Source: a virus. Taken from it: a DNA stretch of 28,808 nt. Shown one piece after another: positions 2,991 to 28,808 of the stretch. Each line of letters starts with the position of its first letter. Within the stretch, counting starts at the first letter, position 1. The notes under the pieces were generated by a model that was not told where the DNA came from, made no database searches, and was given only the letters and a program-made list of their open reading frames with translations. The position numbers and the translations under genes are program-made. The DNA lies in the IMG/VR virus record IMGVR_UViG_3300042566_000808, positions 1 through 28,808 of that record, one strand, 5' to 3'.

Positions 2991-2993
2991 ACT

Positions 2994-4618: not shown

Positions 4619-5719
4619 ATGAGTCAAGCACAATACAATCTTTCTACCAAAACAGATTACTTACATCGCAAGATGTTTTTGGATCCTGCTGGTCCTGTGA
4701 CCATTCAACGATTTGAAGAAGTCAAATATAACAAACTGGCCAAGTATGAGCAAGAGGCCCGGGGGTTCTTTTGGGTGCCAGAAGAAATCTCATTAAGCAA
4801 GGATGCCAATGACTTTAAAGAAGCGTCAGACACAGTCAAACATATCTTTACCGCAAACCTGTTGCGTCAAACCGCACTGGACAGCTTGCAAGGCCGTGGG
4901 CCAGCACAAGTTTTTACTCCTGTGGTAAGCATTCCTGAACTGGAAGCACTAATGTATAACTGGAGTTTCTTTGAAACCAATATTCACAGCCGCAGTTACA
5001 GCCATATCATTCGCAACATCTACAACGTGCCCAAGGATGTGTTCAGCACCATTCACGACACCAAAGAGATTGTGGACATGGCTTCAAGTGTGGGTAGGTA
5101 TTATGACCACTTGCATATGGTCAACTGTGAAAAAGAATTGGAAGTTCCTGTCAAGGATCACGCACATGTCAAAGCCATTTGGATGGCACTCAATGCCAGT
5201 TACGCACTAGAAGCATTCCGCTTTATGGTGAGCTTTGCTACTAGTTTAGCAATGGTTGAGAACAAGATCTTTATTGGCAATGGCAATATCATTCAGTTAA
5301 TTTTACAAGATGAAATTCTGCACAAGGAATGGACTGCCTGGATGATCAATCAAGTGGTTAAAGAAGACCCTCGTTTTGCTCAGGCCAAAGCAGAGTGCGA
5401 GGCCGAAGTGTATCAGTTGTACTTGGATGTTATCCGTGAAGAAAAAGAGTGGGCAGACTACCTGTTCAACAAGGGTCCAGTGATTGGTCTCAACGCACAG
5501 ATCCTAAAAGACTTTGTGGACTACACAGCAGCCAATGCGCTGAAAGAAATTGGCATCAAGTATCAAGAGCCGGCACCACGCTCTACACCCATTCCATGGT
5601 TCAACAAGCATGTGGACACCAGCAAGAAACAAACGGCCCTGCAGGAAAACGAATCAACCAACTATGTTATTGGTGTGATGAGTGATGCTATTGACTATGA
5701 GGAACTGCCCAACCTATGA
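4619..5719 (+). CDS. nrdB: Ribonucleoside-diphosphate reductase small (beta) subunit
   Basis: 366 aa, full length for the family. It houses the di-iron centre and tyrosyl radical that serves NrdA. Ligands are visible: D88 (LRQTALDS), E119 and H123 in FFETNIHSRSY, a second-shell LEAFRF glutamate (E. coli E204), and DEILH (E. coli E238/H241). The radical tyrosine is Y127. Compared with E. coli ETIHSRSY there is one extra residue between the ligand Glu and His (ETNIH). The acidic tail ending DYEELPNL is the NrdA-docking peptide. It starts 1 nt after the small membrane protein gene and its stop overlaps the next ATG. Confidence 0.96.
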   Translation: MSQAQYNLSTKTDYLHRKMFLDPAGPVTIQRFEEVKYNKLAKYEQEARGFFWVPEEISLSKDANDFKEASDTVKHIFTANLLRQTALDSLQGRGPAQVFTPVVSIPELEALMYNWSFFETNIHSRSYSHIIRNIYNVPKDVFSTIHDTKEIVDMASSVGRYYDHLHMVNCEKELEVPVKDHAHVKAIWMALNASYALEAFRFMVSFATSLAMVENKIFIGNGNIIQLILQDEILHKEWTAWMINQVVKEDPRFAQAKAECEAEVYQLYLDVIREEKEWADYLFNKGPVIGLNAQILKDFVDYTAANALKEIGIKYQEPAPRSTPIPWFNKHVDTSKKQTALQENESTNYVIGVMSDAIDYEELPNL

Positions 5720-12082: not shown

Positions 12083-12099
12083 TCGACTAGGAGATTCAC

Positions 12100-13425
12100 A
12101 TGTGGAAACTTGTAATCCCTGCACTGGCAGTGGCTCTAACAGGTTGTGGAGGAGGTGGTAGTAGTAGTAGCTCTGGCGCCAGCAACATTGCAGATGCAAT
12201 AGTAACAACCTCCCTGACTGTCGCTGGCTACGTTGAAAATTGTGGATGCAATCCAACTCTTGCTGCCGGAGAGTTTAGCGGCGCTGGTATCAAATATGTT
12301 GTTGTGAGTGGATGGCGTGCTGGCAACCATTTGATGCCTGTCAAAATTTATCGACTCAATACAGATGGCTCCACACAAGATGCTACTACAGATATCCTAG
12401 GCGGAGAGCTACAATTTTCTGTAAACTATCCTGTAGTTGCTGACTTCAACAAAGATGGCATAGATGATATATTTTTGCCTGGATTCAAAGATGCACCTTA
12501 CGTTGAGTTTAACCCATCTGTTGTGTTTTTAAGCAGATCAGGCCAAGCACACCAGCGTGTGGATGTACCTGGCATGAGTTGGAGTCATGCCAGTATGGCC
12601 TTAGATCTCAATAATGACGGATGGTTGGATGTTATCAACAGCACTGGATCAATGTGGATCAACGATCAAACTGGCAACTTTTCTTACATAGAACATTACA
12701 ATTGGGTAAACGGGAGAGTCAACGACAGCATTGCAGGCAGTGCCATATGTGCTGGTGATTTAGATAACTCTGGCACCATGCAACTAGTAGTTACTGATAT
12801 TTCAGGACACATACAAGACACCTGGGTGTTTAAATTTGATGCAGATCTCAAGCCAGTTAAAACAGCAGTATTGCCCATGCCATATTATGATAGGGCCACC
12901 ACAATCGAAGTTAGCCATGATGTTGGATGTGTGGTAACTGATTTAAATAACGATTCATTGCTAGATGTTGTACTAACCAGCACCACAGGTTATACTAGTA
13001 TTGTTCAAATCTACATCAATCAAGGCAACTATCAATTTGAAGAACTAACTGACACTGCTATGCCTGGATACAACAAAAATTCAATTGGAAGCTATCGTCC
13101 TACCATTGTGGATTTCAACCAAGATGGTTGGCCTGACATCTTTCTAGAAGGCAGTTTAGAAACTGAAAACAGCAACCAACTTTGGCTCAACAATGGTAAT
13201 GGCACCTTTACACAAAAAGGCAAAACTCAATTTGAAACATTAAGAGACGACAGTTTAAAGTTAGTGCTTGGTAGTGTTAAGTCAGGTCCCATGCTACCAA
13301 TCCGTGTTGGTGACAGATGGAATTTTGTTACAACAGCAGTATTAGGCGACAAATTTTACATTAACTATGCCCGGACACAATGGAGTTTCCGGTTATGGAA
13401 TTTTCAATCACGGAGTTTTCAATGA
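12100..13425 (+). CDS. Lipoprotein with FG-GAP/VCBS-type calcium-binding repeats
   Basis: 441 aa. MWKLVIPALAVALTGC is a lipoprotein signal with lipobox LTGC (C16), then a Gly/Ser linker (17-27). Five calcium-loop motifs recur: DFNKDGIDD (115-123), DLNNDGWLD (169-177), DLDNSG (220-225), DLNNDSLLD (281-289), DFNQDGWPD (338-346). This is the FG-GAP/integrin-like beta-propeller pattern of surface adhesins and matrix-binding proteins. AGGAG precedes the ATG. The extreme C-terminus (SFRLWNFQSRSFQ) reads through a 15-nt tandem repeat whose other frame encodes MEF-type pentapeptides, so the natural tail may have been altered. A surface lipoprotein of this kind is unusual in a phage; superinfection exclusion or altered host adhesion are possible roles. 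Confidence 0.82.
   Translation: MWKLVIPALAVALTGCGGGGSSSSSGASNIADAIVTTSLTVAGYVENCGCNPTLAAGEFSGAGIKYVVVSGWRAGNHLMPVKIYRLNTDGSTQDATTDILGGELQFSVNYPVVADFNKDGIDDIFLPGFKDAPYVEFNPSVVFLSRSGQAHQRVDVPGMSWSHASMALDLNNDGWLDVINSTGSMWINDQTGNFSYIEHYNWVNGRVNDSIAGSAICAGDLDNSGTMQLVVTDISGHIQDTWVFKFDADLKPVKTAVLPMPYYDRATTIEVSHDVGCVVTDLNNDSLLDVVLTSTTGYTSIVQIYINQGNYQFEELTDTAMPGYNKNSIGSYRPTIVDFNQDGWPDIFLEGSLETENSNQLWLNNGNGTFTQKGKTQFETLRDDSLKLVLGSVKSGPMLPIRVGDRWNFVTTAVLGDKFYINYARTQWSFRLWNFQSRSFQ
13380..13424 (+). repeat. Three imperfect 15-nt tandem repeats over a translation start
   Basis: Units: ATGGAGTTTCCGGTT, ATGGAATTTTCAATC, ACGGAGTTTTCAATG. Units 2 and 3 match at 12/15 positions. Each holds a GGA-type ribosome-binding core; units 1 and 3 lead into an ATG. 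The last unit supplies GGAG and the start codon of the next gene. Confidence 0.8.
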
Positions 13426-13883
13426 AAAAGATTTACTACGAAAAAATTGGCCGTAGGTATGTGCCTGTGAGTGAGTACGACAGTGAGTACTTGGACAGTT
13501 TTTCCAAGGGCACACACATTGTGATGTGCTATCCAGGGGGACAAAGCCGTCGGTACAACATCAATCCCAACTATGCCGCAATGATTGCAGCAGGGCGACT
13601 GGCCGAAGATGGCATTTGTGAAGCCATGCACAAGGCCAGTGAGATGCGGCCACAGCGTACACCTATTACTCCTGGACAAAAGAAAGCCTGGGAAAAATTG
13701 GCAAAAGAGTTTGGTGATGACCTGGCCACACTGACCATGGGCAGTGCGCGAGATCATGCCGAAGCAGGGGTCAATGCTATGATTGCGGAAGCAGACAAAC
13801 TCATGACACATCCGGCTGTGCGGGATGCATACGAACAGTTTCAAACTGTGTGCAATCTTGTCAAACAAAAACAAAACACTTGA
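13422..13883 (+). CDS. Conserved phage protein of unknown function (MKKIYYEKIGRRYVPV type)
   Basis: 153 aa. ATG 13422 is chosen: GGAG lies 6 nt upstream, it overlaps the lipoprotein TGA (ATGA), and the N-terminus MKKIYYEKIGRRYVPVSEYD looks like a native start. An in-frame ATG at 13380 would add the repeat-encoded MEFPVMEFSITEFS. Blocks: KGTHIVMCYPGG (42-53), SRRYNINPNYAAMIAAGRLAE, TPITPGQKKAWEKLAKEFGD, and a helical C-terminus. No enzyme signature. The stop lies inside the -35 box of the following promoter. Confidence 0.78.
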   Translation: MKKIYYEKIGRRYVPVSEYDSEYLDSFSKGTHIVMCYPGGQSRRYNINPNYAAMIAAGRLAEDGICEAMHKASEMRPQRTPITPGQKKAWEKLAKEFGDDLATLTMGSARDHAEAGVNAMIAEADKLMTHPAVRDAYEQFQTVCNLVKQKQNT

Positions 13884-13900
13884 CAATGTGGTCAAGTGTT
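13875..13900. promoter_or_regulatory. Perfect inverted repeat over a -35 box (operator candidate)
   Basis: AACACTTGAC, 6-nt spacer AATGTG, GTCAAGTGTT: arms of 10 bp, fully complementary. The left arm contains the first five bases of the -35 TTGACA, and the right arm ends 2 nt before the -10. Placement fits a repressor operator; a hairpin in upstream transcripts is the alternative, but no U-tract follows. Confidence 0.65.
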
Positions 13901-13908
13901 GTTATAAT
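13880..13908 (+). promoter_or_regulatory. Sigma70 promoter P3
   Basis: -35 TTGACA (13880-13885), 17-bp spacer, -10 TATAAT (13903-13908): perfect consensus in both boxes. Expected start near 13915. It drives the GC-rich leader/51-codon frame and then the genes from 14100. Confidence 0.92.
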
Positions 13909-14099: not shown

Positions 14100-14420
14100 A
14101 TGACTGTCAAAATTGAGGGCTCTGCGTTGAGTATCCCTGAGTCACTTGACTCGCTTAAAGTAACGCCTTTGGTCATGCACCGTATTTGGTTTCGATTGCA
14201 TACTACTAAAGAATGGTATGCAGTCATGAAAGAAGCTAGAACCATGTTTGGAACAAATTGGCGCACTCAAAGCAGGGTAAAACGCAGATTGGAGCACACT
14301 GCATTGTGGGGAGTTTCATTGCAACCTGTGCCGGTTTGGTTTGAAGTGCCAGATCAGACCTTTGCCACATGGGTGGCAGTAAAGCATGCGGTGATTGCCA
14401 TGCCACCGCCTGGTAAATAA
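14100..14420 (+). CDS. Hypothetical protein
   Basis: 106 aa. AAAGG about 6 nt upstream of ATG 14100. The sequence is basic and Trp/His-containing (HRIWFRLHTTKEWYAVMKEA, WRTQSRVKRRLEH, TALWGVSLQPVPVWF), ends in a small hydrophobic stretch and PPPGK; no convincing membrane segment. Family not recognised. It lies between P3 and the membrane coiled-coil gene. Confidence 0.65.
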   Translation: MTVKIEGSALSIPESLDSLKVTPLVMHRIWFRLHTTKEWYAVMKEARTMFGTNWRTQSRVKRRLEHTALWGVSLQPVPVWFEVPDQTFATWVAVKHAVIAMPPPGK

Positions 14421-14425
14421 TTTTT

Positions 14426-15925
14426 ATGATATTTGGATTTGGAATTCTCGCCACCGCATTACTCCTAAGCGCCGTAGCTGCCTACTACTCAGTGGCAGGT
14501 CTTACTGCTATATTCTCGGCGGCCACAATACCCGTGATCATCATGGGCGGCTCGTTGGAATTGGGCAAAATTGTTGCCACTGTATGGTTGCACAACAACT
14601 GGCGCCGTGCCGGTATTGTGTTCAAATTATATTTGGTACCGGCCATAGCATTCCTAATGATACTGACCAGCATGGGTATCTTTGGCTATTTGTCAAAGGC
14701 ACACTCGGATCAAAGTCTAGTGTCGGGTGATGTGCAAAGTAAAATTGCCATCTACGACGAAAAGATTCGAACAGCCAAGGATAATATAGATGCGAACCGG
14801 AAGGCGCTTAAACAGATGGATGAAGCTGTGGACCAAGTTATGGGTCGAAGCAGTGATGAAAAAGGTGCGGATAAGGCGGTACAAATCCGTCGCTCACAGC
14901 AGAAAGAACGAGCAAGACTTCAATCTGAGATTGCGGCCGAACAGAAAACTATTGCCGCCATTAGCGAAGAACGTGCGCCGATTGCCGCAGAGGTACGCAA
15001 GGTCGAAGCAGAAGTAGGACCAATCAAATACATTGCGGCCTTGCTTTACGGAGACAATCCTGATTCCAATCTGTTAGAACGTGCAGTGCGTTGGATGATC
15101 ATTATGATTGTGTTGGTGTTTGATCCACTTGCTCTCACACTTATCCTTGCATCCAACAAACAGTTTGAATGGGCACGACAAGGCACAGGCGGCTTTGTAC
15201 ACGACGAACCCAAATACGAACCAGACGATGGGCCTCTCACTGAACAACAACTAGAACAGATTCAGGCCAGTGTGGAACTACCAAAAGATCCGCATCCACC
15301 AGGTTGGATGTTTGATAAAAAAGAAGATGAACGTCCATGGAACGAACGTTATCCTTATCTTGCTTGGCCGTTTGAACATTTTAAAAATCTCAAGCCCATG
15401 GTTGCGCCAGATCCTGTCCGAGAAGATAAGGCTGCAATGGCTATTCGGCCCCCGGAAGAAATACCTGGTGTGGAAATACGTCCTTGGACTGACAAAGAAA
15501 TTGAAGCGTTAAATCAACCAGACGAAGATGAAATTGACAAAGAAGCCATACGTCGCTGGAAAATGGATCATCCAGATGATACTATTAAAAGTCAACGAAA
15601 CAAACTAGCCCGAGGCTATATTGATCGATTGCCTTGGCATGATCCAAAATACACACACTCAAGTTTTGGCAGTCAATTTCCTGCAAATCCCGGGCGTGGT
15701 GACACCTTTGTAAAAACTGATCGCATGCCACCACAGTTGTATAAATTCAACGGAGACGAGTGGATTATTATTGACAAAAACTCTACAGATAACTATACTT
15801 ACGACACAGCATACATTGATCATCTTATTGATAAGATTACTACAGGTGAGTATGAACCGGACTTACTGAGTGATATCGAACGAGAACAAGTTGCAGAGCG
15901 TCTTAAACAACCCAACAATTTATGA
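14426..15925 (+). CDS. Membrane protein with long periplasmic/cytoplasmic coiled coil
   Basis: 499 aa. Hydrophobic segments at about 4-25, 26-41, 62-89 and 222-243. Between the third and fourth lies a long heptad-rich coiled coil (about 97-198, Glu/Lys/Arg/Ala rich). The tail from 244 is acidic and Pro-rich, ending with a compact part (PPQLYKFNGDEWIIIDK and a Tyr-rich stretch). The architecture resembles membrane coil proteins of T4-like marine phages with no assigned role; a scaffold at the inner membrane is possible. The ribosome-binding site is poor; coupling from the preceding gene (stop 14418-14420) is likely. Its stop overlaps the clpX ATG. Confidence 0.78.
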   Translation: MIFGFGILATALLLSAVAAYYSVAGLTAIFSAATIPVIIMGGSLELGKIVATVWLHNNWRRAGIVFKLYLVPAIAFLMILTSMGIFGYLSKAHSDQSLVSGDVQSKIAIYDEKIRTAKDNIDANRKALKQMDEAVDQVMGRSSDEKGADKAVQIRRSQQKERARLQSEIAAEQKTIAAISEERAPIAAEVRKVEAEVGPIKYIAALLYGDNPDSNLLERAVRWMIIMIVLVFDPLALTLILASNKQFEWARQGTGGFVHDEPKYEPDDGPLTEQQLEQIQASVELPKDPHPPGWMFDKKEDERPWNERYPYLAWPFEHFKNLKPMVAPDPVREDKAAMAIRPPEEIPGVEIRPWTDKEIEALNQPDEDEIDKEAIRRWKMDHPDDTIKSQRNKLARGYIDRLPWHDPKYTHSSFGSQFPANPGRGDTFVKTDRMPPQLYKFNGDEWIIIDKNSTDNYTYDTAYIDHLIDKITTGEYEPDLLSDIEREQVAERLKQPNNL

Positions 15926-17154
15926 AACAAACCGAAAATTTAGATAATTGCAGTTTTTGTGGCAAACACAAGGATGCAGTGGTTAAATTGATAGTGGGCC
16001 AGGATGTCGCTATTTGCAATGAGTGTGTGGATCTTTGCCAAACGCTCTTGATAGATGATCCAGTGGTTAAACCTGTAGAACATGTTAGCCTTGATCCAAG
16101 AGCCATCTTAAAACATCTTGACCAGTACGTTATAGGACAAGATCGTGCCAAAATGGTGCTGAGTGTGGCCATTGCCAATCACTACAAACGCATACGCAAC
16201 CAAGACAAAAATACTGAAATTGAAAAAGTCAACATCTTGATGTTGGGCCCTACAGGCTCAGGCAAAACATTGTTGGCACGATCAGTGGCTAGATATTTAG
16301 ATGTGCCTTTTGTGATTGCTGATGCCACTAGCCTTACCGAAGCAGGTTATGTGGGCGACGACGTTGAAAGTTTAATTTCTCGCTTGTATGCCGCTTCAGG
16401 CAATGACGTTGAAAAAACACAACAAGGTATTGTGTTTGTGGATGAAATAGACAAGATCAGTCGCCGCAGTGAAAGTCAAAGTATCACACGAGATGTGTCA
16501 GGAGAAGGTGTACAGCAAGCTCTGCTCAAGTTGGTAGAAGGCACCAAGTGCAGAATCACACCAACCGGCGGCCGCAAACATCCCAATGGGGAAACAGTAG
16601 AGATTGACACCACAAACATCTTGTTTATCGCTGGTGGTGCATTTGTGGGTCTAGACAACATTGTGCGCAATCGCATACGTGGTACTGCTATTGGATTTCA
16701 AGCTGAAGTGTCAGTAGACCGTGCTGGTGACCTTGACCAAGTAACACCCGACGACTTGGTTAGATTTGGTATGATTCCAGAGTTTGTGGGACGTTTTCCA
16801 AGCTGGGTTGCACTAAATGAACTTGCACTGGAAGATTTGATATCTATCCTGACAGAAATCAAGCATAGTTATGTGGACCAATATCAGTGGTTGTTTGCAC
16901 AAGATCAAGTTGCATTAGACTTTGATAAAACAGCACTGGAACAGGTGGCTAAAAATACTCTAAAAAACAAAACAGGAGCACGTGGCCTGCATAGCGAACT
17001 GGAACGTGTGCTATTGCCACACATGTTTAATCTAGCACGTTATAAAGAACAAGGCATTGACCAAGTAAAAATCACTAATGACCTGGTAAATACTCCTACA
17101 GAACTAAAGGTACATGATGAACAAATTGCGAGGAAGGTCGGTAATAGTCGCTGA
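15922..17154 (+). CDS. clpX: ClpX, ATP-dependent unfoldase of the Clp protease
   Basis: 410 aa (E. coli 424). N-terminal zinc finger C10/C13/C32/C35 for adaptor and substrate binding; Walker A GPTGSGKT (109-116); pore-1 loop GYVGDD (142-147); Walker B VFVDEID (171-177); RKH loop (218-220); ClpP-docking IGF loop (257-259); sensor 2 GARGL (352-356). All elements for ATP hydrolysis, substrate pulling and ClpP docking appear intact, so it should be active. No clpP is in the window, so it would have to use host ClpP or act as a stand-alone unfoldase. The ATG overlaps the preceding TGA, and its 3' end overlaps bS21 by 41 bp. Confidence 0.97.
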
Positions 17155-17341
17155 TGGTAATGTAGAAAAAGCTCTACGTAAATTCAAGAAAAAAATCCAG
17201 ACATCTGGTATTCTTAACGACCTGCGTGATCGTGAATTCTACACCAAGCCTACTACTGCTCGCAAGCTCAAACGCAGTGCTGCTAAAAATCGCTGGCGCA
17301 GACAACTGGCCGAGCAAGCACTGCCTAAAAAAATGTACTGA
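17114..17341 (+). CDS. rpsU: Ribosomal protein bS21
   Basis: 75 aa (bacterial bS21 is about 70). Core VEKALRKFKKKIQTSGILND followed by LRDREFYTKPTTARKLK is the family hallmark (ALRRFKR...REFYEKPTxxRKR), with a basic tail. bS21 sits on the 30S platform by the anti-Shine-Dalgarno site and influences initiation; phage copies are thought to enter host ribosomes and bias translation. Two ATGs (17114, 17117) follow AAAGG; either may be used. The gene begins inside clpX. The stop overlaps the next ATG (TGATG). Confidence 0.93.
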   Translation: MMNKLRGRSVIVADGNVEKALRKFKKKIQTSGILNDLRDREFYTKPTTARKLKRSAAKNRWRRQLAEQALPKKMY

Positions 17342-17568
17342 TGTACATTGAGTTCCAGTTGTCCTCAGACTTAGTTCGAAACAAACTGAATGCATGGGCA
17401 ATAAAATACAATATCAAATACCGTACTAAAGTATTCAAATACACCTTGCGGGTTACATTTGATTCAGACGAATCTTACACACTATTTGCAATGACGTGGG
17501 TACCACACCCAGAACATCCAGAATGGACAACTTACCGCTTGGTAACTGACCTAAATAATAAAATATAG
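17341..17568 (+). CDS. Small hypothetical protein
   Basis: 75 aa, coupled to bS21 by TGATG. Alternating hydrophobic residues (MYIEFQLSSDLV, FKYTLRVTFDSDESYTLF, TTYRLVTDL) suggest a small beta/alpha fold with a helix at 11-24. Cytoplasmic, no signature. Coupling to bS21 suggests coordinate expression, nothing more. Confidence 0.7.
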   Translation: MYIEFQLSSDLVRNKLNAWAIKYNIKYRTKVFKYTLRVTFDSDESYTLFAMTWVPHPEHPEWTTYRLVTDLNNKI

Positions 17569-17585
17569 TTTTTCTTCGTGTATAA

Positions 17586-17591
17586 TAAATA
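17586..17591 (+). promoter_or_regulatory. Late-promoter-like TAAATA upstream of hsp20
   Basis: TAATAAATAAC around 17583-17593 resembles the T4/cyanophage late box (TATAAATA / CTAAATA). It lies 64 bp before the hsp20 ATG. An overlapping TATAAT (17581-17586) has no -35 partner at 16-18 bp. A hairpin begins 2 nt after the box. Confidence 0.45.
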
Positions 17592-17593
17592 AC

Positions 17594-17621
17594 AATGTAG
17601 TGCCCATAGTGGGGCTACATT
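17594..17621 (+). other. Stem-loop in hsp20 leader
   Basis: AATGTAG (17594-17600) pairs with CTACATT (17615-17621); inner CCC/GGG pairs extend the stem. No U-tract, so a 5' leader structure or weak transcription barrier is more likely than a terminator. Confidence 0.55.
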
Positions 17622-17655
17622 ACAAGTCATCTTGCTTATATAAAGGAGAAAACAA

Positions 17656-18108
17656 ATGACAAAAACTCTCACCCTTCGCGGCTTCGACATTCCATCAATT
17701 CACAAATTTGGTATCGGTTTCGATAACATGTTTGATGAACTCATGCGTGTGAGTGCTCAACAATCCTCAACAAACTATCCACCTTACAACATTGTGCAAA
17801 TCAATGAAGATGAGTACATGATCAGTCTTGCTGTGGCTGGTTTTGGATTGGATAATCTTTCAGTAACCAAGGACAAAAAATTCTTGATCATTGAAGGCAA
17901 AGAGTATCAACCTGATAGCGACAAGATCGTGCCAAACTATCTGCACAAAGGCATCAGCAATAGAGATTTCCGTCGTGAATTCCAACTTGCAGACCATGTG
18001 GAGATCAGCAATGCTCATCTTGAACTGGGTATCTTAAGCGTTTACCTAAAGCGTGAAGTGCCGGAAGACGCTAAGCCAAAGACCATTGCGATCACCTACA
18101 CTTCCTAA
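17656..18108 (+). CDS. Small heat shock protein Hsp20 (IbpA-like)
   Basis: 150 aa ATP-independent holdase. The alpha-crystallin domain spans about 38-140: PPYNIVQINEDEYMISLAVAG then FGLDNLSVT, FLIIEGKE, GISNRDFRREFQLADHV, and a final LSVYLKREVPEDAK. The C-terminal I-A-I (residues about 145-147) is the IxI motif for oligomer assembly. AAAGGAG lies 8 nt before the ATG. Hsp20 is common in T4-like phages of aquatic bacteria, where it probably protects virion proteins during assembly. It has its own leader with a late-type box and hairpin, so it can be transcribed apart from clpX-bS21. Confidence 0.95.
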   Translation: MTKTLTLRGFDIPSIHKFGIGFDNMFDELMRVSAQQSSTNYPPYNIVQINEDEYMISLAVAGFGLDNLSVTKDKKFLIIEGKEYQPDSDKIVPNYLHKGISNRDFRREFQLADHVEISNAHLELGILSVYLKREVPEDAKPKTIAITYTS

Positions 18109-18118
18109 TATAATAGTG

Positions 18119-18124
18119 TAAATA
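18119..18124 (+). promoter_or_regulatory. Late-promoter-like TAAATA upstream of clpS
   Basis: GTGTAAATACAG, 52 bp before the clpS ATG. A TATAAT (18109-18114) sits just upstream but lacks a -35. The box is followed directly by a strong hairpin, as at 17586 and 25276. Confidence 0.45.
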
Positions 18125-18150
18125 CAGTGGCAGCAATCCTGCTGCCACTG
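18125..18150 (+). other. Perfect 11-bp stem-loop between hsp20 and clpS
   Basis: CAGTGGCAGCA, loop ATCC, TGCTGCCACTG: 11 uninterrupted pairs with a tetraloop. The downstream sequence (ATTGTATAG) has no U-run, so intrinsic termination would be weak. It could protect or attenuate the hsp20 message or structure the clpS leader. Confidence 0.75.
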
Positions 18151-18176
18151 ATTGTATAGCAAAGCAAGGAATAGAA

Positions 18177-18488
18177 ATGGCACAGAGCGACACCCGCACA
18201 CGAATCAAACCATCAGAGGCCGTAAAAGAGCCACCTATGTTTCGCGTGGTTTACTTGAACGACAACACAACTTCCATGGAATTTGTGGTTGAAAGTTTGG
18301 TTGAATATTTTGAATACACCCCCGAAACCGCAGAACAAATCACCATTGACATTCACGAAGAAGGCTCTGCTTGTGTGGCAGTGTTGCCTTATGAGATTGC
18401 TGAACAAAAAGGTGTTGAAGTTACTGTGAGTGCTAGATCACAAAACTATCCGCTTCAAATCAAACTGGAACCTGAAACAGTTCAATAA
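18177..18488 (+). CDS. clpS: ClpS, N-degron adaptor
   Basis: 103 aa (E. coli 106). Aligns without gaps to E. coli ClpS from PP(M)F/YxV to PLxxxLE. The N-degron pocket is mostly kept: N28-D29 (E. coli N34/D35), T32 (T38), M34 (M40), V37 (V43), H60 (H66). D36 is replaced by Asn30 and the gatekeeper M62 by Thr56. ClpS normally hands N-end-rule substrates to ClpA-ClpP and blocks some other ClpA substrates. The N-terminal extension (1-18) needed for ClpA activation is short but present. AAGGA precedes the ATG. The 3' end overlaps the convergent phosphoesterase gene by 7 bp. Confidence 0.94.
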   Translation: MAQSDTRTRIKPSEAVKEPPMFRVVYLNDNTTSMEFVVESLVEYFEYTPETAEQITIDIHEEGSACVAVLPYEIAEQKGVEVTVSARSQNYPLQIKLEPETVQ

Positions 18489-19273
18489 TCAATGATTATA
18501 CGCAATGGATGGTACACATATTGTGACCATTGCGTATTATTGCGGCCACGGCAGTTGTTGACATAACGAACACCATCTCGATACTGGTCAACTTTGCCAT
18601 GATAGTGCCCAAAGCACCAGGTGTCAATCTTTCGTTCAGTATCTACGTCTAAGGCATTCAGCATGTGCCTGTTGCCCATAACATTGAATTTAAGTTTATT
18701 AGCTAAATCAATATCATGTGCAATCAACTCAGGCATGGGCACAGTGTGGCTGACTATGACAATTTTTTTTACATCTCTATGAGTTTGTAATTTCTTTACA
18801 CTGGCTATCAAGTAATTGGCATCAATGGTGCTGGCTCGGCGTATGGCATCATAATTGTCGTGTGTGTAGGAGTACTGCTCACACCACCAATCTCTGACTT
18901 CTTCAGGATCAATAGTGTTGTCAAAATCAAAACCCCACCAACCGTTTGTGCCCAAAATAGCCACGCCATTGATTACCACCACATTGTCTTGTAGATACAC
19001 CACATTGGATATTTTTCCAATTTGCCGAGTCATTTCTCGATAGCTGCTGCTAAGATTATCAATAGAATTTACATGTTCGTCATTGCCATCAACATAAAAT
19101 ACTGCTTGATAGCATTGCCCAAGATGTGTTAGTGTCTTATACAGTAAGGATCTGTTTTTACATACGTCACCAATGACCACACAGTGCGGGCTGGTAGCAC
19201 AGCCGGTCCAATCAAACTCACCATCCCAAGTGTCAATGTGTAAATCAGAAATTAAATCAAAGGCAAGTTGCAT
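18482..19273 (-). CDS. Calcineurin-like metallophosphoesterase
   Basis: 263 aa, minus strand. Two-metal phosphoesterase motifs in order: D10-L-H12, GDV (35-37), GNDEH (63-67), SHT (175-177) and GHYH (222-225). The usual GNHE is GNDE here, as in some family members. It could act on a nucleotide, phosphoprotein or nucleic acid; the substrate cannot be read from sequence. It is convergent with clpS (7-bp overlap). On the minus strand TAAATA (19285-19280) lies just before the ATG, so the message may be nearly leaderless; no ribosome-binding site is seen. Confidence 0.88.
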   Translation of the reverse strand: MQLAFDLISDLHIDTWDGEFDWTGCATSPHCVVIGDVCKNRSLLYKTLTHLGQCYQAVFYVDGNDEHVNSIDNLSSSYREMTRQIGKISNVVYLQDNVVVINGVAILGTNGWWGFDFDNTIDPEEVRDWWCEQYSYTHDNYDAIRRASTIDANYLIASVKKLQTHRDVKKIVIVSHTVPMPELIAHDIDLANKLKFNVMGNRHMLNALDVDTERKIDTWCFGHYHGKVDQYRDGVRYVNNCRGRNNTQWSQYVYHPLRIIIDY

Positions 19274-19655: not shown

Positions 19656-20925
19656 TCCACTTGTAAAAATCGTCTATGTCTTGTTGTGTTCTGCCTGGTT
19701 TGACATTGTTATAGTATTTTCCCATCTCAGGATTTAGGCTGGCAATTTCTCCCAGTTTTTTGTACCACATTCCAGTTCGGTTTTGATTCATTATGTCAAT
19801 TGCTTGATTGAGATTGTGTTGATACTCATCAACAACCATGTCATGAAAGTTGGATGAAAAAAACCATTTTTTGTTGTAGTCGGCAATTTCATAAAGTTTC
19901 TCCCATAACAAAGTTTTGTCAGCACGATCTAATTTGGCTATCCTATTCATTTCTGCAATGATCATGTGCAGTCGCGTTGCCGAATCTGTTTCTTGATCGT
20001 AATCTTCGTTTATGATTGGACTGAATGTTTTAAACCCATAGTCTTTTAAATACGCTAAACTTCCTGGTGTAGCTACTGCAATAAACGGCATACCACATGC
20101 TATGGGTCTTAACATTTTTTCTGTAAGGTGATTTCGTTGATCATCAAACAACGTTTCTAAAACTACTTCGATGCCTGCACTACCATAATCATCGTGGTTG
20201 TAGTCTGCACTAGCTGCGGAAGAATGTGTGTTTAATGGCAGGTGAGATTCCAATGCTGTTGAAATTTTAAAATTGGCATTTTGATATTTGTGATCTTGAT
20301 AATGTGTGTCTGAATCAATTGGATTGAAACTTGTTTTGCAATAGGTTGTTAGACTATTTGCGCACAATAATTCTGCAAATTTAAGTCTGTATTCTCTAGT
20401 GCCGGACCAAGCACGATTGTATATTAAAAAATCTGTTTGAATGTTTTTGTGCTTTAGTAAAGGGTCATGCTCGGCAAATCTAAACCAATCTCTAGCTATC
20501 AGTGCATGACTCCAGTAATAAACAGGTACAAATCCTACAGCCTGATATTTTTCCACTTCTGGGCTGTTTTTTTCACTGTGGCATAACATCATTAGATCAT
20601 AGCCAGAATATGCAGTAGGAATAACTCCTCTAATGTGCATTTGAGACAATTGTGCTAACATTTCGGAATGAGCTTGTTGATTAAATCTTTCAAAGGCCAA
20701 AGCAGAAATACTATCGTTACTATACAAATCAAATTGTAAAGGTTCTTGATCGTGAAAGATTATAGCCGGAGTTGTCTGCCCGTAAAACCAGGCAACGTGG
20801 TCCGTAAAGTAAAACTTTAAATCAGCCAATTTTTTTGAGCCATATGGTTTAAAGCCATAAATTATGATATCGTGCTTGCACAAGTCGTGCAAAAAATTAT
20901 ATAATCTATCTAAAGGAACGCTCAT
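19639..20925 (-). CDS. Glycosyltransferase-like protein
   Basis: 428 aa, minus strand. The C-terminal half has blocks of phage glycosyltransferase-like proteins: GIEVVLETLFDDQRNHLTEK (the E..LF...LTEK donor-site pattern), MLRPIACGMPFIAVATPGSL, and YGFKTFSPIINEDYD. The N-terminal half (IIIYGFKPYGSKKL, IIFHDQEPLQFDLY) could be the acceptor domain. The sugar and acceptor are unknown; the neighbouring sugar dehydrogenase suggests a common glycan. The ATG at 20925 overlaps the plus-strand dehydrogenase ATG (CATG); with no ribosome-binding site there, an internal TTG (20892) is an alternative start. Confidence 0.72.
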   Translation of the reverse strand: MSVPLDRLYNFLHDLCKHDIIIYGFKPYGSKKLADLKFYFTDHVAWFYGQTTPAIIFHDQEPLQFDLYSNDSISALAFERFNQQAHSEMLAQLSQMHIRGVIPTAYSGYDLMMLCHSEKNSPEVEKYQAVGFVPVYYWSHALIARDWFRFAEHDPLLKHKNIQTDFLIYNRAWSGTREYRLKFAELLCANSLTTYCKTSFNPIDSDTHYQDHKYQNANFKISTALESHLPLNTHSSAASADYNHDDYGSAGIEVVLETLFDDQRNHLTEKMLRPIACGMPFIAVATPGSLAYLKDYGFKTFSPIINEDYDQETDSATRLHMIIAEMNRIAKLDRADKTLLWEKLYEIADYNKKWFFSSNFHDMVVDEYQHNLNQAIDIMNQNRTGMWYKKLGEIASLNPEMGKYYNNVKPGRTQQDIDDFYKWINQNS

Positions 20926-22165
20926 GGCAAAAATTGGTTTTATTGGAATTGGTAAACTTGGGTTAGACTGTGCCGAAGTAATGGCAGAAAAACATCAAGT
21001 GTGGGGATATGATATTTACCCACGAACAAGTGACTCGGTAAAAGTATGTGGGATTGAAGAACTAGTAACCGAAAGTGAGTGGATTTTTATTGCTGTACCA
21101 ACTCCACATGCACAAGGCTATGATGGATCAATTCCCAGTTCGCATATGGAACCTCGAGACTTTGGGCATGATGCTGTAATTGATGCAATTAAGAATGTCA
21201 ACAAGTACGCAACAACATCTAAGAAAGTTGTGTTAATTTCCACAGTACTACCGGGCACCACACGCAAATATTTTTATCCGTTGTTGGATAAAAAACATCA
21301 GTTCTTGTACAACCCTTACCTCATTGCCATGGGGTCAGTCAAGTGGGACATGGTCAATCCTGAAATGATTATGATAGGCACCGAAGACGGCAACCCTAAC
21401 GCATTGGCTGGTGAACTTCGCGCACTGTATGACACAGTGATGCAGAACAATCCACGCTATGAGATTGGCACCTGGGACGAGTGCGAAGCTATCAAGATCT
21501 TCTACAACACTTTTATCTCAGCCAAGGTTGGTCTTGTGAACATGATTCAAGATTTTGCCATGAAGATTGGACACATCAACGTTGATGTTGTGACTGATGC
21601 TTTAGCACGTTCAACCATGCGCATCATGGGACCCAAGTACATGACAGCTGGCATGGGAGATGCAGGTGCTTGCCATCCACGTGATAATATTGCTCTGCGT
21701 TGGTTAGCACAAGAATATGACATTGGATATGATTTGTTTGATACTGTGATGCATGCCCGTGAGATTCAAGCCAAAAATTTGGCAAATTATTTGGTTCACC
21801 TCAGTGCGATGAACGACGACATGCCTATTGTGATTCACGGCAAGGCCTACAAGCCTGACGTAGAATACTGTATTGGCTCATACTCAACGCTGATCGGGCA
21901 CTATGTTGAACTGGCAGGCCGGTCAGTTGTTTATGTGGATCCATTGGCTGACAATAAAGACAAAGTTGTTGAGTCTGTTGATGAATCTGCAATCTTCTTA
22001 TGGGCGCACAATCGCAAGATCACCTATGAATACACAGGCGATCAAGCCGACACCAAACCATATTGCGATATTTTACCCGGCAGTATTATTGTTGATCCAT
22101 GGCGCAAGTTAGAATCTACCAACGACGTTGAAGTTGTACACTATGGCAACACACGTGGTGCTTGA
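20924..22165 (+). CDS. UDP-sugar 6-dehydrogenase (UDP-glucose/GDP-mannose dehydrogenase family)
   Basis: 413 aa. Oxidises a nucleotide sugar at C6 to the uronate with two NAD. The Rossmann G8-x-G10-xx-G13 and D30 bind NAD; VPTPH (58-62) and STVLPGTT (106-113) line the site; K191 in EAIKIFYNTF and the catalytic C250 in AGACHPRDN match the family K and C (GSCFPKD in UGDH). C-terminal nucleotide-sugar domain has IHGKAYKPDV (family GxAFK). The start ATG 20924 has AAAGGA 6 nt upstream. Whether the substrate is UDP-Glc, UDP-ManNAc or GDP-Man cannot be decided. The 3' end overlaps the next gene by 23 bp. Confidence 0.93.
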   Translation: MAKIGFIGIGKLGLDCAEVMAEKHQVWGYDIYPRTSDSVKVCGIEELVTESEWIFIAVPTPHAQGYDGSIPSSHMEPRDFGHDAVIDAIKNVNKYATTSKKVVLISTVLPGTTRKYFYPLLDKKHQFLYNPYLIAMGSVKWDMVNPEMIMIGTEDGNPNALAGELRALYDTVMQNNPRYEIGTWDECEAIKIFYNTFISAKVGLVNMIQDFAMKIGHINVDVVTDALARSTMRIMGPKYMTAGMGDAGACHPRDNIALRWLAQEYDIGYDLFDTVMHAREIQAKNLANYLVHLSAMNDDMPIVIHGKAYKPDVEYCIGSYSTLIGHYVELAGRSVVYVDPLADNKDKVVESVDESAIFLWAHNRKITYEYTGDQADTKPYCDILPGSIIVDPWRKLESTNDVEVVHYGNTRGA

Positions 22166-22661
22166 GTACCATATTGAACGATTCTGGGATGATGAGTTCA
22201 AAACATTGGACTACATCCAGGAACCATTTAATGATCCAGTGAGCGTACAACAATGGACCGCACTAGGCTATACCAGCAGGTTCTGTGGTGACCTTTGTGA
22301 CATGCGCCATCGCCTGCCTGCATGGACCAGCAAGTTTGTGGAAATGTACGAAGCTCAAGGCTGGCGAGACATAGGTTTGGCGTTTTATCGCATGAGCACA
22401 GACACAGTGATGCCAGTACATCAAGATCTGTACAAACGCTACATTGAAGTGTTTGATCTTCAAGGACAAGAAACTTCTATCCGCCGGGCTTTGTTATTGT
22501 TGGAAGACTGGAAACCCGGACACTATCTGGAAGTAGATGGCCGACCCTATGTTGACTGGAAGGCTGGCCACACAGTTGAGTGGATATATGATGCACCGCA
22601 CATGGCTGCCAATATTGGTCTCGAAGACCGCTATAGTTTACAAATTACTGGACATGTATGA
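22143..22661 (+). CDS. Putative Fe(II)/2-oxoglutarate-type oxygenase (HxD...H fold)
   Basis: 172 aa from ATG 22143 (a TTG at 22128 would add five residues). The second half looks like a double-stranded beta helix: VMPVHQDLY supplies H93-x-D95, APHMAANIG supplies a distal H153, and R163 in EDRYSLQITG is placed to hold 2-oxoglutarate. RALLLLEDWKPGHYLEVDGR is a typical strand pair, similar to aspartyl/asparaginyl beta-hydroxylase-like phage proteins. Substrate unknown; position between a sugar dehydrogenase and an amidinotransferase suggests a small-molecule or glycan role. It overlaps both neighbours (23 bp; ATGA). Confidence 0.68.
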   Translation: MATHVVLEYHIERFWDDEFKTLDYIQEPFNDPVSVQQWTALGYTSRFCGDLCDMRHRLPAWTSKFVEMYEAQGWRDIGLAFYRMSTDTVMPVHQDLYKRYIEVFDLQGQETSIRRALLLLEDWKPGHYLEVDGRPYVDWKAGHTVEWIYDAPHMAANIGLEDRYSLQITGHV

Positions 22662-23572
22662 TATCGAGTTTTGATGAGTGGAGCCCACTAAAAAAAATAG
22701 TAGTAGGTAGTGCAACTGACGCAAACTGGCCAGTGAACGATCCTGTGTTTTCTCGAGAATCAGAAAAAACCACTTGGACGGAAACACCTGTTCCACGTGG
22801 CCCTGTTCCTCAGCGCATAATTGATGAAGCCAACGAAGATCTAGATATTCTGGCAACAACTTTAATGAGTTTAGACGTAGAAGTTGTGCGCCCAGATCTA
22901 CTCAACTTCCAAACTCATGATGGCATGTACAATTATTGTCCTCGCGACCGATTCCTTGTATACGGTTCAACCATAGTAGATCCTGCTATGATGTATCCTT
23001 GTAGAGACATGGAACTGCAATGCTACCACGATATTGTGGATTCTGCTGACCACTACAAGTTCATGCCACGCAACGAAGGCATGACTTTGGACGCTGCCAA
23101 TGTGTGTCGTCTTGGCGACAAAATGTTGTATTTGGAATCAGCGTCAGGCAATCAAAAAGCCTACCACTGGTTACGCGAGCAGTTTCCAGATGTCACAATA
23201 GAATTGTGCAACTTTTATGCTGGTGTACACATTGATTCAACCATTGTGCCACTACGTGAAGGTTTGGTCATGTTAAACGGAAGCAGAGTGGGATTTGATA
23301 CTGTGCCCCGAGTGTTTGATGGTTGGCACAAGATTTGGATAAACGATGTTGTGGCCCAGGACTTTTACCGTTATCCATATGCATCAAAATGGATTGCCAT
23401 GAACATGTTAGTGGTAGATCCGCACACTGTGATCTGCGATGCTGACCAAACTGAATTGATCAAAACACTAAAGAGTTATCAATTTGAAGTTATACCATTA
23501 CGGTTAAGACAAAGCCGCACTCTTGGAGGCGGCTTTCATTGTGTTACGTTAGATTTAGTACGTCAACGTTAG
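22658..23572 (+). CDS. Amidinotransferase (glycine/inosamine amidinotransferase family)
   Basis: 304 aa. Transfers an amidino group, normally from arginine, through a Cys-amidino intermediate. Catalytic triad by family comparison: D145 (TLDAANV; GATM D254), H191 (GVHIDST; GATM H303), C295 (GGGFHCVTLDL; GATM C407). CPRDRFLVYG (94-103) is the conserved propeller entry strand. The N-terminus SSFDEWSPLKKIVVG fits the family start. Shorter than human GATM (423 aa) and near StrB1-type and arginine-deiminase-fold bacterial enzymes. Acceptor amine unknown. Starts in the preceding stop (ATGA) and ends convergent, 4-bp overlap, with the next minus gene. Confidence 0.9.
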   Translation: MISSFDEWSPLKKIVVGSATDANWPVNDPVFSRESEKTTWTETPVPRGPVPQRIIDEANEDLDILATTLMSLDVEVVRPDLLNFQTHDGMYNYCPRDRFLVYGSTIVDPAMMYPCRDMELQCYHDIVDSADHYKFMPRNEGMTLDAANVCRLGDKMLYLESASGNQKAYHWLREQFPDVTIELCNFYAGVHIDSTIVPLREGLVMLNGSRVGFDTVPRVFDGWHKIWINDVVAQDFYRYPYASKWIAMNMLVVDPHTVICDADQTELIKTLKSYQFEVIPLRLRQSRTLGGGFHCVTLDLVRQR

Positions 23573-27330: not shown

Positions 27331-28125
27331 ATGGAGAAAACATATCGCAGCATCTTTATCTCCGATGTTCACCTAGGCACCAAAGAGTGCCAAGCTGATC
27401 GTCTAAACAATTTCCTCAAGCACAACACCTGCGAATCCTTGTACCTAGTGGGCGACATCATTGACGGTTGGAAGGTGCAACAAAACCGATTGAGATGGAA
27501 GCAAAGCCATACCAATGTGGTTCGCAGGATCTTAGGCCATGCCAAACGCGGCACACGAGTTGTGTATGTGGCCGGCAATCACGACGAATTTTTACGCCCA
27601 ATGATACCTGACGGTATCACCTTTGGACATGTGGAAGTTCGCAATCAATGTGAACATGTGGGCGCAGATGGAAAACATTATTTGGTCACACATGGTGACT
27701 TGTTCGATGGTATTACTAGACTGGCACCATGGCTGAGTTTTCTAGGAGACAAAGCATATGATTTTATATTATTTCTCAACACTAAGTTTAATTGGATACG
27801 TCATCGCATGGGTTTTGGGTACTGGAGTATTAGCCTGTATCTTAAGCATCGCGTTAAAAAAGCAGTAGATTTTATATTTCAATTTGAACGCAATCTCACT
27901 GACTACTGTAAAAAGCGTGGATTTGATGGCGTAATATGTGGACACATTCATCATGCTGAAATCAAAACTATAAATGGCGTTGTTTACATGAATGATGGCG
28001 ACTGGGTTGAGTCATGCACAGCATTGGTAGAACATCATTCAGGTGCATGGGAAATTGTAACATGGACTCAAAAAAATGACAAAGAAGATACTGATAGTAA
28101 CAGACAACTTGCCGGATCAAATTAA
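27331..28125 (+). CDS. LpxH-like metallophosphoesterase (UDP-2,3-diacylglucosamine diphosphatase type)
   Basis: 264 aa. Motifs: SD12-V-H14-L-G-T, GDIIDGW (41-47), GNHDEF (82-87), THGD (120-123), CGHIHHA (203-209). The order and the DVHLG-T-..C-QAD and GDIIDGW blocks match the LpxH-related group found beside envelope glycosyltransferases in many proteobacteria. LpxH itself cleaves UDP-diacylglucosamine in lipid A synthesis; the exact substrate of this subgroup is uncertain. Hydrophobic/aromatic 140-185 could be a membrane-contact lid. ATG 27331 has no proper ribosome-binding site. Its 3' end overlaps the glycosyltransferase by 50 bp, implying tight coupling. Confidence 0.88.
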   Translation: MEKTYRSIFISDVHLGTKECQADRLNNFLKHNTCESLYLVGDIIDGWKVQQNRLRWKQSHTNVVRRILGHAKRGTRVVYVAGNHDEFLRPMIPDGITFGHVEVRNQCEHVGADGKHYLVTHGDLFDGITRLAPWLSFLGDKAYDFILFLNTKFNWIRHRMGFGYWSISLYLKHRVKKAVDFIFQFERNLTDYCKKRGFDGVICGHIHHAEIKTINGVVYMNDGDWVESCTALVEHHSGAWEIVTWTQKNDKEDTDSNRQLAGSN

Positions 28126-28808
28126 TGGTGTGGTTACGACCTACAAGAATTTGGAGGCACATGCGCTTTTGGATGGGTATCAGCTTGTTTATATTGATCC
28201 CGGGCAGTTCCCCCACCGTGATTGTCCTGGCTACAACGAAGTCAAGATTGCCTATCCCCGGGCGCTGCGCCAGAAGATTGCGGAGGTGGGTGCGGATCAT
28301 TACCATATTGCCACAGAGGGTCCTCTCGGTGTGTCTGCTCGACACCTGCTTGAGCGTGACGGTATACGTTATAATACCGCTTATCATACTCGCTTCCCTG
28401 AAGGCATAAAAAAACTTGTGGGTGTGCCTGAATTTATTACCTGGGCCTATGTGCGTTGGTTCCACAAACACTCAGGCAAGGTGCTGACCACAACAGAAAC
28501 CATGGTCAACGAACTGAGAGATCAAGGCTTTGACGGCACAGTGATCAGTTGGACACGTGGTGTTGACCGAGAAGTGTTCAAGCCTGACTGGCGTGATCCT
28601 GCGGAAAATGATCGTCCCATCCTGGTGTGCGTGAGTAGAGTTTCAAAAGAAAAGAACCTTGATGACTTTTGTGCCATGGAATATCCGGGTGCTAGAAAAA
28701 TCATGGTAGGTGATGGTCCTTACAGAAAAGAACTGCAACAGAAATATCCTGACGTGGAGTTTGTGGGATTTAAAACTGGACCGGCCCTGGCGGAATACTA
28801 TGCACAGG
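28076..28808 (+). CDS. GT4 family glycosyltransferase, 3' end outside window
   Basis: 244 codons visible; the frame is open to the right edge. N-terminus KKILIVTDNLPDQINGVVTT is the GT4 acceptor-domain start (V-T-D-x-x-P-x-x-N-G-V). HIATEGPLG (77-85), TAYHTRFPE (101-109), W-T-R-G-V-D-R-E-V-F (159-168), VSRVSKEKNL (186-195) and VGDGPYR (211-217) match the GT-B retaining glycosyltransferases, such as bacterial lipid mannosyl/sulfoquinovosyl transferases. Acceptor is probably a membrane lipid, given the LpxH-like partner, but that is inference. ATG 28076 lies inside the phosphoesterase gene; no other start gives this N-terminus. Confidence 0.92.
   Translation, partial: MTKKILIVTDNLPDQINGVVTTYKNLEAHALLDGYQLVYIDPGQFPHRDCPGYNEVKIAYPRALRQKIAEVGADHYHIATEGPLGVSARHLLERDGIRYNTAYHTRFPEGIKKLVGVPEFITWAYVRWFHKHSGKVLTTTETMVNELRDQGFDGTVISWTRGVDREVFKPDWRDPAENDRPILVCVSRVSKEKNLDDFCAMEYPGARKIMVGDGPYRKELQQKYPDVEFVGFKTGPALAEYYAQ

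What the first reader, a model, noticed from the sequence alone, without database searches (positions are those of the whole stretch)
15922..18488. Phage proteostasis/translation block: ClpX, bS21, Hsp20 and ClpS in 2.6 kb
Seen: intact motifs for all four, in the order clpX-bS21-unknown-hsp20-clpS. Known: Hsp20 and bS21 occur singly in phages; ClpX and ClpS are host protease parts. Inference: a cassette that retargets host ClpP proteolysis and host ribosomes during infection, perhaps to remove specific host proteins by N-degron or ssrA routes. I know of no named phage system with this set.
Basis: partly seen in the sequence, partly recalled or inferred. Interest (0 to 1): 0.85.

Follow-up and report, generated by a model that had tools for sequence, protein, structure and literature searches.

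The report
Jumbo-phage operon of Clp and ribosome genes
A group of very large bacteria-killing viruses carries, always in the same order, genes for a protein-unfolding motor, a ribosome part, a small chaperone and a degradation adaptor, and their near relatives also carry the matching protease, which suggests that these viruses bring their own protein-quality-control and translation kit into the cell.

Summary
Observation confirmed: ClpX, bS21, a 75-aa unknown, Hsp20 and ClpS lie in that order on one strand at 15922-18488 with intact motifs. Of 80 IMG/VR loci pulled only by a divergent ClpX, 66 hold ClpX-S21-Hsp20-ClpS in the same order. Cultured phages PA5oct, Paride and (without Hsp20) SCTP-2 carry it. 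A consensus sigma-70 promoter precedes the operon in 54/61 relatives; covarying hairpins precede hsp20 and clpS.

'Retargets host ClpP' is weakened: relatives encode their own ClpP and often ClpA with DnaJ; the closest relative has clpP 6.5-9.4 kb beyond the window's end. Phage ClpX keeps the ClpP-docking loop, ClpS its N-degron pocket and ClpA-docking residues. Best reading: one operon of a phage-encoded Clp and translation-takeover kit, host probably Burkholderiales. Single parts, and a full Clp set in Atu_ph07, were known; I found no report of the conserved operon. Function is untested.

The parts
13880..13908 (+). Consensus sigma-70 promoter TTGACA-17-TATAAT (12/12, extended -10) of the operon; overlaps a 10-bp inverted repeat 13875-13900 (possible operator)
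   Evidence: a TTGAC[AT]-N16-18-TATAAT promoter lies upstream of the membrane-protein gene in 54 of 61 unique relatives; inverted repeat
14100..14420 (+). 106-aa ORF of unknown function, between the promoter and TM499
   Evidence: no Pfam match
14426..15925 (+). TM499: membrane protein (hydrophobic helices 2-57, 64-83, 216-251; long coiled coil 101-196; variable tail). Its stop overlaps the clpX start (ATGA)
   Evidence: AlphaFold2 pLDDT 78.5; kept next to clpX in 22 of 23 lineages; no Pfam or PDB relative
15922..17154 (+). ClpX: zinc finger, Walker A/B, GYVG and RKH pore loops, IGF ClpP-docking loop, sensor 2 all present
17114..17341 (+). Ribosomal protein bS21 (overlaps the 3' end of clpX by 41 nt; alternative ATG at 17117)
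   Evidence: closest bacterial S21 proteins are betaproteobacterial
17341..17568 (+). U75: 75-aa protein, predicted ferredoxin-like beta-alpha-beta-beta-alpha-beta fold, function unknown; start overlaps the S21 stop by 1 nt
   Evidence: AlphaFold2 pLDDT 90.8; no convincing PDB match
17581..17591 (+). TATAATAAATA, T4-late-promoter-like motif upstream of hsp20 (TATAAATA in other members)
   Evidence: exact TATAAATA in 36 of 120 hsp20 upstreams against 2 expected; consensus match only
17596..17619 (+). Stem-loop upstream of hsp20
   Evidence: 93% of cells paired, 6 of 10 pairs with changes on both sides
17656..18108 (+). Hsp20 small heat-shock protein (IbpA-like)
18109..18125 (+). Conserved TATAATAGTGTAAATAC element directly after the hsp20 stop
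   Evidence: alignment A5
18125..18150 (+). Stem-loop between hsp20 and clpS (11 bp, loop of 4)
   Evidence: 95% of cells paired, 9 of 11 pairs with changes on both sides, no shuffle reached the covariation score
18177..18488 (+). ClpS adaptor: alpha-amino pocket (N34, D35, T38, H66, E. coli numbering) and ClpA-docking E79, K84 kept; M62 replaced by T
18482..19273 (-). Metallophosphoesterase, convergent neighbour; constant in the near clade but not a member of the cassette in divergent lineages
   Evidence: (phrog_1649 1.6e-24)

Best explanation
The block is the core of an old operon of T4-like jumbo phages (relatives of PA5oct/Paride and Atu_ph07) that equips the phage with its own proteolysis and translation-initiation parts. 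SHOWN by sequence: a conserved gene order membrane protein-ClpX-(IF-3)-bS21-(U75)-Hsp20-ClpS; a conserved consensus sigma-70 promoter in front; covarying intercistronic hairpins before hsp20 and clpS; intact catalytic and docking motifs; phage-encoded ClpP and often ClpA/DnaJ elsewhere in the same genomes. INFERRED mechanism: host RNA polymerase transcribes the first genes early. Phage ClpX docks by its IGF loop on phage (and perhaps host) ClpP and degrades chosen proteins. Phage ClpS loads N-degron proteins on ClpA (phage or host) for ClpAP and shifts ClpA away from its usual substrates. Phage bS21 (with IF-3 in most lineages) enters 30S subunits and biases initiation to phage mRNA. Hsp20 holds unfolded protein during the infection. 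The membrane protein may place or supply substrates, but this is a guess. Which proteins are degraded is unknown.
For: Order and selective retention: 66 of 80 ClpX-selected loci; only cassette families are kept in >50% of 23 lineages, the next family in 10/23. ClpX: 133 of 133 unique viral proteins keep Walker K/T and DE, the G-Y and final G of GYVG, and G-F of the ClpP loop; zinc cysteines 132-133. ClpS: N34 123, D35 122, T38 123, H66 122, E79 123, K84 121 of 124. ClpP with intact Ser-His-Asp in relatives; ClpA-like protein with Clp_N, two Walker sites and an IGF loop near DnaJ. Closest relative G013: clpP1 and clpP2 6.5-9.4 kb past the window end. PA5oct: ClpX-S21-x-x-Hsp20-ClpS, then ClpP, GroES, DnaJ-ClpA within 26 kb. 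IF-3 between ClpX and S21. Promoter in 54 of 61. Purifying selection.
Against: No expression, binding or degradation data. The window itself ends before any clpP or clpA. Some large records with the block show no ClpP (for example G028, 233 kb; G007, 221 kb), though they may be fragments. ClpS acts on ClpA, not ClpX, in known systems, so the two Clp parts of the block need not form one machine. S21 or U75 is missing in some members, so not all parts are obligatory. The second ClpP paralogue has lost the hydrophobic docking pocket.
Confidence: 0.55

Rival explanations
1. Host-ClpP retargeting: phage ClpX and ClpS mainly dock on host ClpP and ClpA and redirect the host protease.
For: The IGF loop and the ClpA-docking residues of ClpS are conserved and would fit host partners; Iyer et al. 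2021 proposed that phage ClpS feeds host ClpAP (PMC7824862). A ClpA-like gene was found in only 9 of 24 records, many of them fragments.
Against: ClpP is encoded in 19 of 24 near relatives and 12 of 18 further records and in PA5oct, Phosso and SCTP-2; the closest relative has it just past the window end.
Confidence: 0.2
2. Assembly chaperones: ClpX, Hsp20 and ClpP serve virion maturation (unfolding, prohead processing), not host takeover.
For: PA5oct ClpP and FtsH carry an ESI-MS/MS note in the record; ClpP-like prohead proteases exist and ClpP2 reaches none of the true ClpP cut-offs; a T4-late-like motif precedes hsp20 in many members.
Against: The operon promoter is a host sigma-70 consensus, more typical of early genes; bS21, IF-3 and ClpS have no assembly role known to me; ClpP1 scores as true ClpP (311 bits, cut-off 249).
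Confidence: 0.15
3. Frozen synteny: useful host-derived genes that happen to have stayed neighbours in one old phage lineage, without working together.
For: Members share related TerL (for example 46-56% between the window's closest relative and the other lineages) and so one ancestor; Phosso has the order spread over 17 kb and the parts occur singly in other phages.
Against: Background neighbours have turned over while these families remain; start-stop overlaps, shared promoter and covarying hairpins indicate a regulated unit.
Confidence: 0.1

Closest known systems
Pseudomonas jumbo phages PA5oct, MIJ3 and Paride (Arenbergviridae)
   Same: ClpX-S21-x-x-Hsp20-ClpS in the same order and strand; ClpP, DnaJ-ClpA nearby; nearest cultured TerL, 51%
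   Different: No TM499 directly upstream and no IF-3 in the block; FtsH present; ClpX only 41% identical. The genome papers (PMC6892783, PMC10761892) do not discuss the Clp genes; Paride ClpX is annotated 'hypothetical protein' and ClpP 'head maturation protease'
Salicola phage SCTP-2
   Same: Membrane protein-ClpX-S21-ClpS in the same order; S21 unannotated there; ClpP elsewhere
   Different: No Hsp20 between S21 and ClpS
Agrobacterium phage Atu_ph07 and Sinorhizobium phages Phosso and AP-J-162
   Same: Multi-gene Clp sets with DnaJ, Hsp20, S21 and IF-3 reported in these phages (PMC6102473, PMC11242549); order ClpX-IF-3-S21-sHSP-ClpS kept in Phosso
   Different: In Phosso the genes are spread over about 17 kb with many insertions, not a compact operon; the papers treat the genes one by one
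Huge phages with ribosomal protein S21 (Al-Shayeb et al. 2020; PMC7162821)
   Same: Phage bS21 predicted to redirect initiation
   Different: No Clp linkage described in that text
Jumbo-phage ClpP, ClpS, ClpX and Hsp20 survey (Iyer et al. 2021; PMC7824862)
   Same: Lists each protein in some jumbo phages and suggests ClpS feeds host ClpAP
   Different: Says several phages encode ClpS 'instead' of ClpP; here they occur together, with a conserved operon that includes bS21

Membership tests
ClpX | N-terminal C4 zinc finger, AAA+ Walker A/B, GYVG pore loop, sensor 2, equivalog score | tested here: met
   (526 bits, cut-off 359)
ClpX | IGF-type loop for ClpP docking | tested here: met
   IGF in the window; G-F in 133 of 133 viral ClpX
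ClpX | Hexameric unfoldase that binds ClpP | not testable with these tools
   Needs purified protein
ClpS | Pfam ClpS domain and N-degron alpha-amino pocket | tested here: met
   5.7e-25; N34, D35, T38, H66 kept
ClpS | NCBIfam ClpS equivalog cut-off | tested here: not met
   best 77 of 149 bits; a divergent family member, not an equivalog by that rule
Ribosomal protein bS21 | Pfam/TIGR00030 score above cut-off | tested here: met
   66 bits; 64 of 28.95
Ribosomal protein bS21 | Incorporated in 30S subunits | not testable with these tools
   Needs mass spectrometry of ribosomes
Hsp20 / alpha-crystallin | Pfam HSP20 domain | tested here: met
   8e-13, 48.8 bits, cut-off 20.8
IbpA | NCBIfam IbpA equivalog cut-off | tested here: not met
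   115 of 212 bits
Complete phage Clp protease system | ClpP gene in the same genome | tested here: inconclusive
   Not within the 28.8-kb window; present in its closest relative and in most relatives
Complete phage Clp protease system | ClpA with N-domain for ClpS | tested here: inconclusive
   Not in the window; Clp_N protein in 9 of 24 relatives and annotated ClpA in PA5oct
Known anti-phage defence systems | PADLOC model match over most of a protein | tested here: not met
   Only weak partial overlaps, mostly of the AAA domain

The most novel reading that the evidence does not exclude
These phages install a complete, phage-specific ClpXP/ClpSAP machine together with reprogrammed 30S initiation (bS21, IF-3) that replaces or overrides host proteostasis and translation.
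Probability: 0.12. Interest if true: 0.88.

Novelty: new variant of a known kind. Interest (0 to 1): 0.64.

Why it matters
It changes the picture from scattered auxiliary genes to a conserved, regulated operon of jumbo phages that joins targeted proteolysis with ribosome modification. It gives a concrete set of genes to delete in cultured phages (PA5oct, Paride). It also makes testable whether phages run their own N-degron and ClpXP pathways, and whether this explains replication in non-growing hosts. Finally, it shows that automatic annotation hides the system: ClpX is 'hypothetical protein' and ClpP is 'head maturation protease' in Paride, and S21 is 'hypothetical protein' in SCTP-2.

Tried and rejected
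(1) 'Acinetobacter phage MD-2021a' as a close relative: its contigs carry metX, leuA, trigger factor and clpA, so they look like bacterial chromosome; rejected. (2) U75 by fold: ferredoxin-like, but no Foldseek hit better than E 0.08. (3) TM499 by fold: no PDB hit better than E 0.05, coiled-coil matches only. (4) Phage-made N-degrons: no Aat in 21 records. (5) SspB-type ssrA delivery: none in 13 records. (6) FtsH as a general part: only in PA5oct among 21 records. (7) PA5oct ClpS as bait in IMG/VR: only one relative. (8) Defence-system reading: PADLOC gives only weak partial overlaps. (9) Plasmid origin: no plasmid match. (10) S21 alignment A3 had no stretch conserved enough to search bacterial genomes; repeated with A4.
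Full report
OBSERVATION. Pfam identifies ClpX, ribosomal S21, HSP20 and ClpS; the 75-aa ORF (U75) has no family. NCBIfam places ClpX and S21 above equivalog cut-offs and Hsp20 and ClpS below them. The record is a 28,808-base IMG/VR virus fragment. The genes are tightly packed: the stop of the upstream 499-aa membrane protein (TM499) overlaps the clpX start, S21 begins 41 nt inside the end of clpX, and U75 starts on the S21 stop. In 28 of 28 members counted, the S21-U75 junction has the same 1-nt overlap.

DISTRIBUTION. ClpX and ClpS as baits gave 19 and 80 IMG/VR loci, almost all with TM499-ClpX-(S21)-(U75)-Hsp20-ClpS and a convergent metallophosphoesterase. For a less biased test I used only the ClpX of a 49%-identical relative. 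Of 80 loci, 66 hold all four families, always in the order ClpX, S21, Hsp20, ClpS on one strand. Some of these contigs are near-duplicates. Collapsed to 23 lineages at 70% ClpX identity, single-linkage families in the surrounding 8 kb show what is really kept: ClpX 23, TM499 22, S21 20, Hsp20 20, ClpS 17 and a 180-aa protein 15; the next family reaches 10. Pfam shows the 180-aa protein to be initiation factor IF-3. It sits between ClpX and S21 and is absent from all records of the window's own clade that were searched, up to 364 kb. The lineages share ancestry and are not independent, but the neighbourhood has turned over around the block.

CULTURED RELATIVES. PA5oct has ClpX-S21-two ORFs-Hsp20-ClpS, then FtsH, ClpP, GroES and DnaJ-ClpA within 26 kb; Paride has the same order. 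SCTP-2 has the membrane protein-ClpX-S21-ClpS, with S21 unannotated. Phosso keeps the order ClpX-IF-3-S21-sHSP-ClpS spread over 17 kb. The large terminase of the closest relative is nearest to PA5oct/Paride (51%), Atu_ph07 (48%) and Phosso (47%), so these are T4-like jumbo phages of that branch.

IS HOST ClpP THE TARGET? In 24 relatives, 19 records encode ClpP, each as two paralogues; 12 of 18 further large cassette-bearing records encode at least one. The closest relative (G013, 73-93% DNA identity in aligned pieces) has clpP1 at 2662-3285 and clpP2 at 4994-5572; the window's right end maps to its position 12097, so both lie 6.5-9.4 kb beyond the window. ClpP1 has the full catalytic triad and most of the hydrophobic docking pocket; ClpP2 has a Ser-His pair but a changed pocket. 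Nine of 24 records have a ClpA-like protein with Clp_N; in the full-length ones examined both Walker sites and an IGF loop are present, and all nine records have a DnaJ gene about 1 kb away. So the phage most likely brings its own ClpP; using host ClpP as well is not excluded.

MOTIFS. In 133 unique viral ClpX proteins the ATPase and pore motifs and the G-F of the ClpP loop are invariant or nearly so. In 124 unique ClpS proteins the alpha-amino pocket (N34, D35, T38, H66) and the residues I recall as ClpA-docking (E79, K84) are kept in 121-123, while M62, a selectivity residue in E. coli ClpS (from memory), is usually T. dN/dS against three close relatives is 0.04-0.07 for ClpX, S21 and Hsp20, 0.02-0.05 for ClpS, about 0.1-0.2 for TM499 and about 0.2 for U75.

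REGULATION. A 12/12 sigma-70 promoter lies at 13880-13908 and a matching TTGAC[AT]-N16-18-TATAAT promoter is found in 54 of 61 relatives. By my estimate such a match is expected in well under one in a thousand stretches of this length. Hairpins before hsp20 and clpS covary strongly. A T4-late-like TATAAATA is enriched before hsp20 (36 of 120 against 2); in the window it reads TATAATAAATA. Whether the hairpins act in RNA processing, stability or translation is unknown.

HOST. Almost all of the 80 best bacterial S21 matches are Betaproteobacteria, many freshwater Burkholderiales; the best identity is about 49-57% over the core, so this is a prediction only.

LITERATURE. Jumbo-phage ClpP, ClpS, ClpX and Hsp20 are listed separately by Iyer et al. 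(PMC7824862); a full Clp set in Atu_ph07 is described in PMC6102473; S21 in huge phages in PMC7162821. The Paride and MIJ3 papers do not mention Clp, nor does a 2026 jumbo-phage review. I found no description of the conserved operon, but most subscription literature was not searchable. The Paride authors' repeated attempts to find phages that replicate on deep-dormant P. aeruginosa yielded only Paride relatives. Paride carries this cassette and its relatives carry the ClpS gene; the link to dormancy is a hypothesis.

VERDICT. Observation confirmed and strengthened; interpretation partly supported; mechanism inferred, not shown.

Noticed in passing
window 17341-17568; L092, L098: U75 is 92-99% identical between the window and two relatives whose ClpX is only 76% identical (dS 0.07-0.11 against about 2), so this small gene has moved by recombination.
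   Followed up: partly
window 13875-13900: A perfect 10-bp inverted repeat overlaps the -35 box of the operon promoter, like an operator; the repeat itself is only partly conserved in relatives.
   Followed up: partly
L218, L150-L226, L115: IF-3 (InfC) lies between clpX and rpsU in 15 of 23 lineages, so the ancestral operon may have carried two initiation components.
   Followed up: yes
L122 2662-5572: Two ClpP paralogues in near-clade phages; ClpP2 has lost the hydrophobic docking pocket, so its role is unclear.
   Followed up: partly
L335 (Paride), L240 (SCTP-2): Cassette genes are mis- or un-annotated in public records: Paride ClpX is 'hypothetical protein', its ClpP 'head maturation protease', SCTP-2 S21 'hypothetical protein'.
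   Followed up: yes
INPHARED CAKLQF020000005 and CAKLQF020000008: Records named 'Acinetobacter phage MD-2021a' carry host housekeeping genes and look like bacterial chromosome.
   Followed up: partly
window 12100-13425 and 2088-2990: Two ORFs with lipoprotein-like signal sequences (the first with FG-GAP-like repeats by eye), unusual in a phage.
   Followed up: no
window 27331-28807: A metallophosphoesterase that looks LpxH-like followed by a group-1-like glycosyltransferase (by eye), and a UDP-glucose dehydrogenase-like gene at 20864-22165, suggest envelope-sugar functions.
   Followed up: no
window 22658-23572: By eye an amidinotransferase-like protein; not searched.
   Followed up: no
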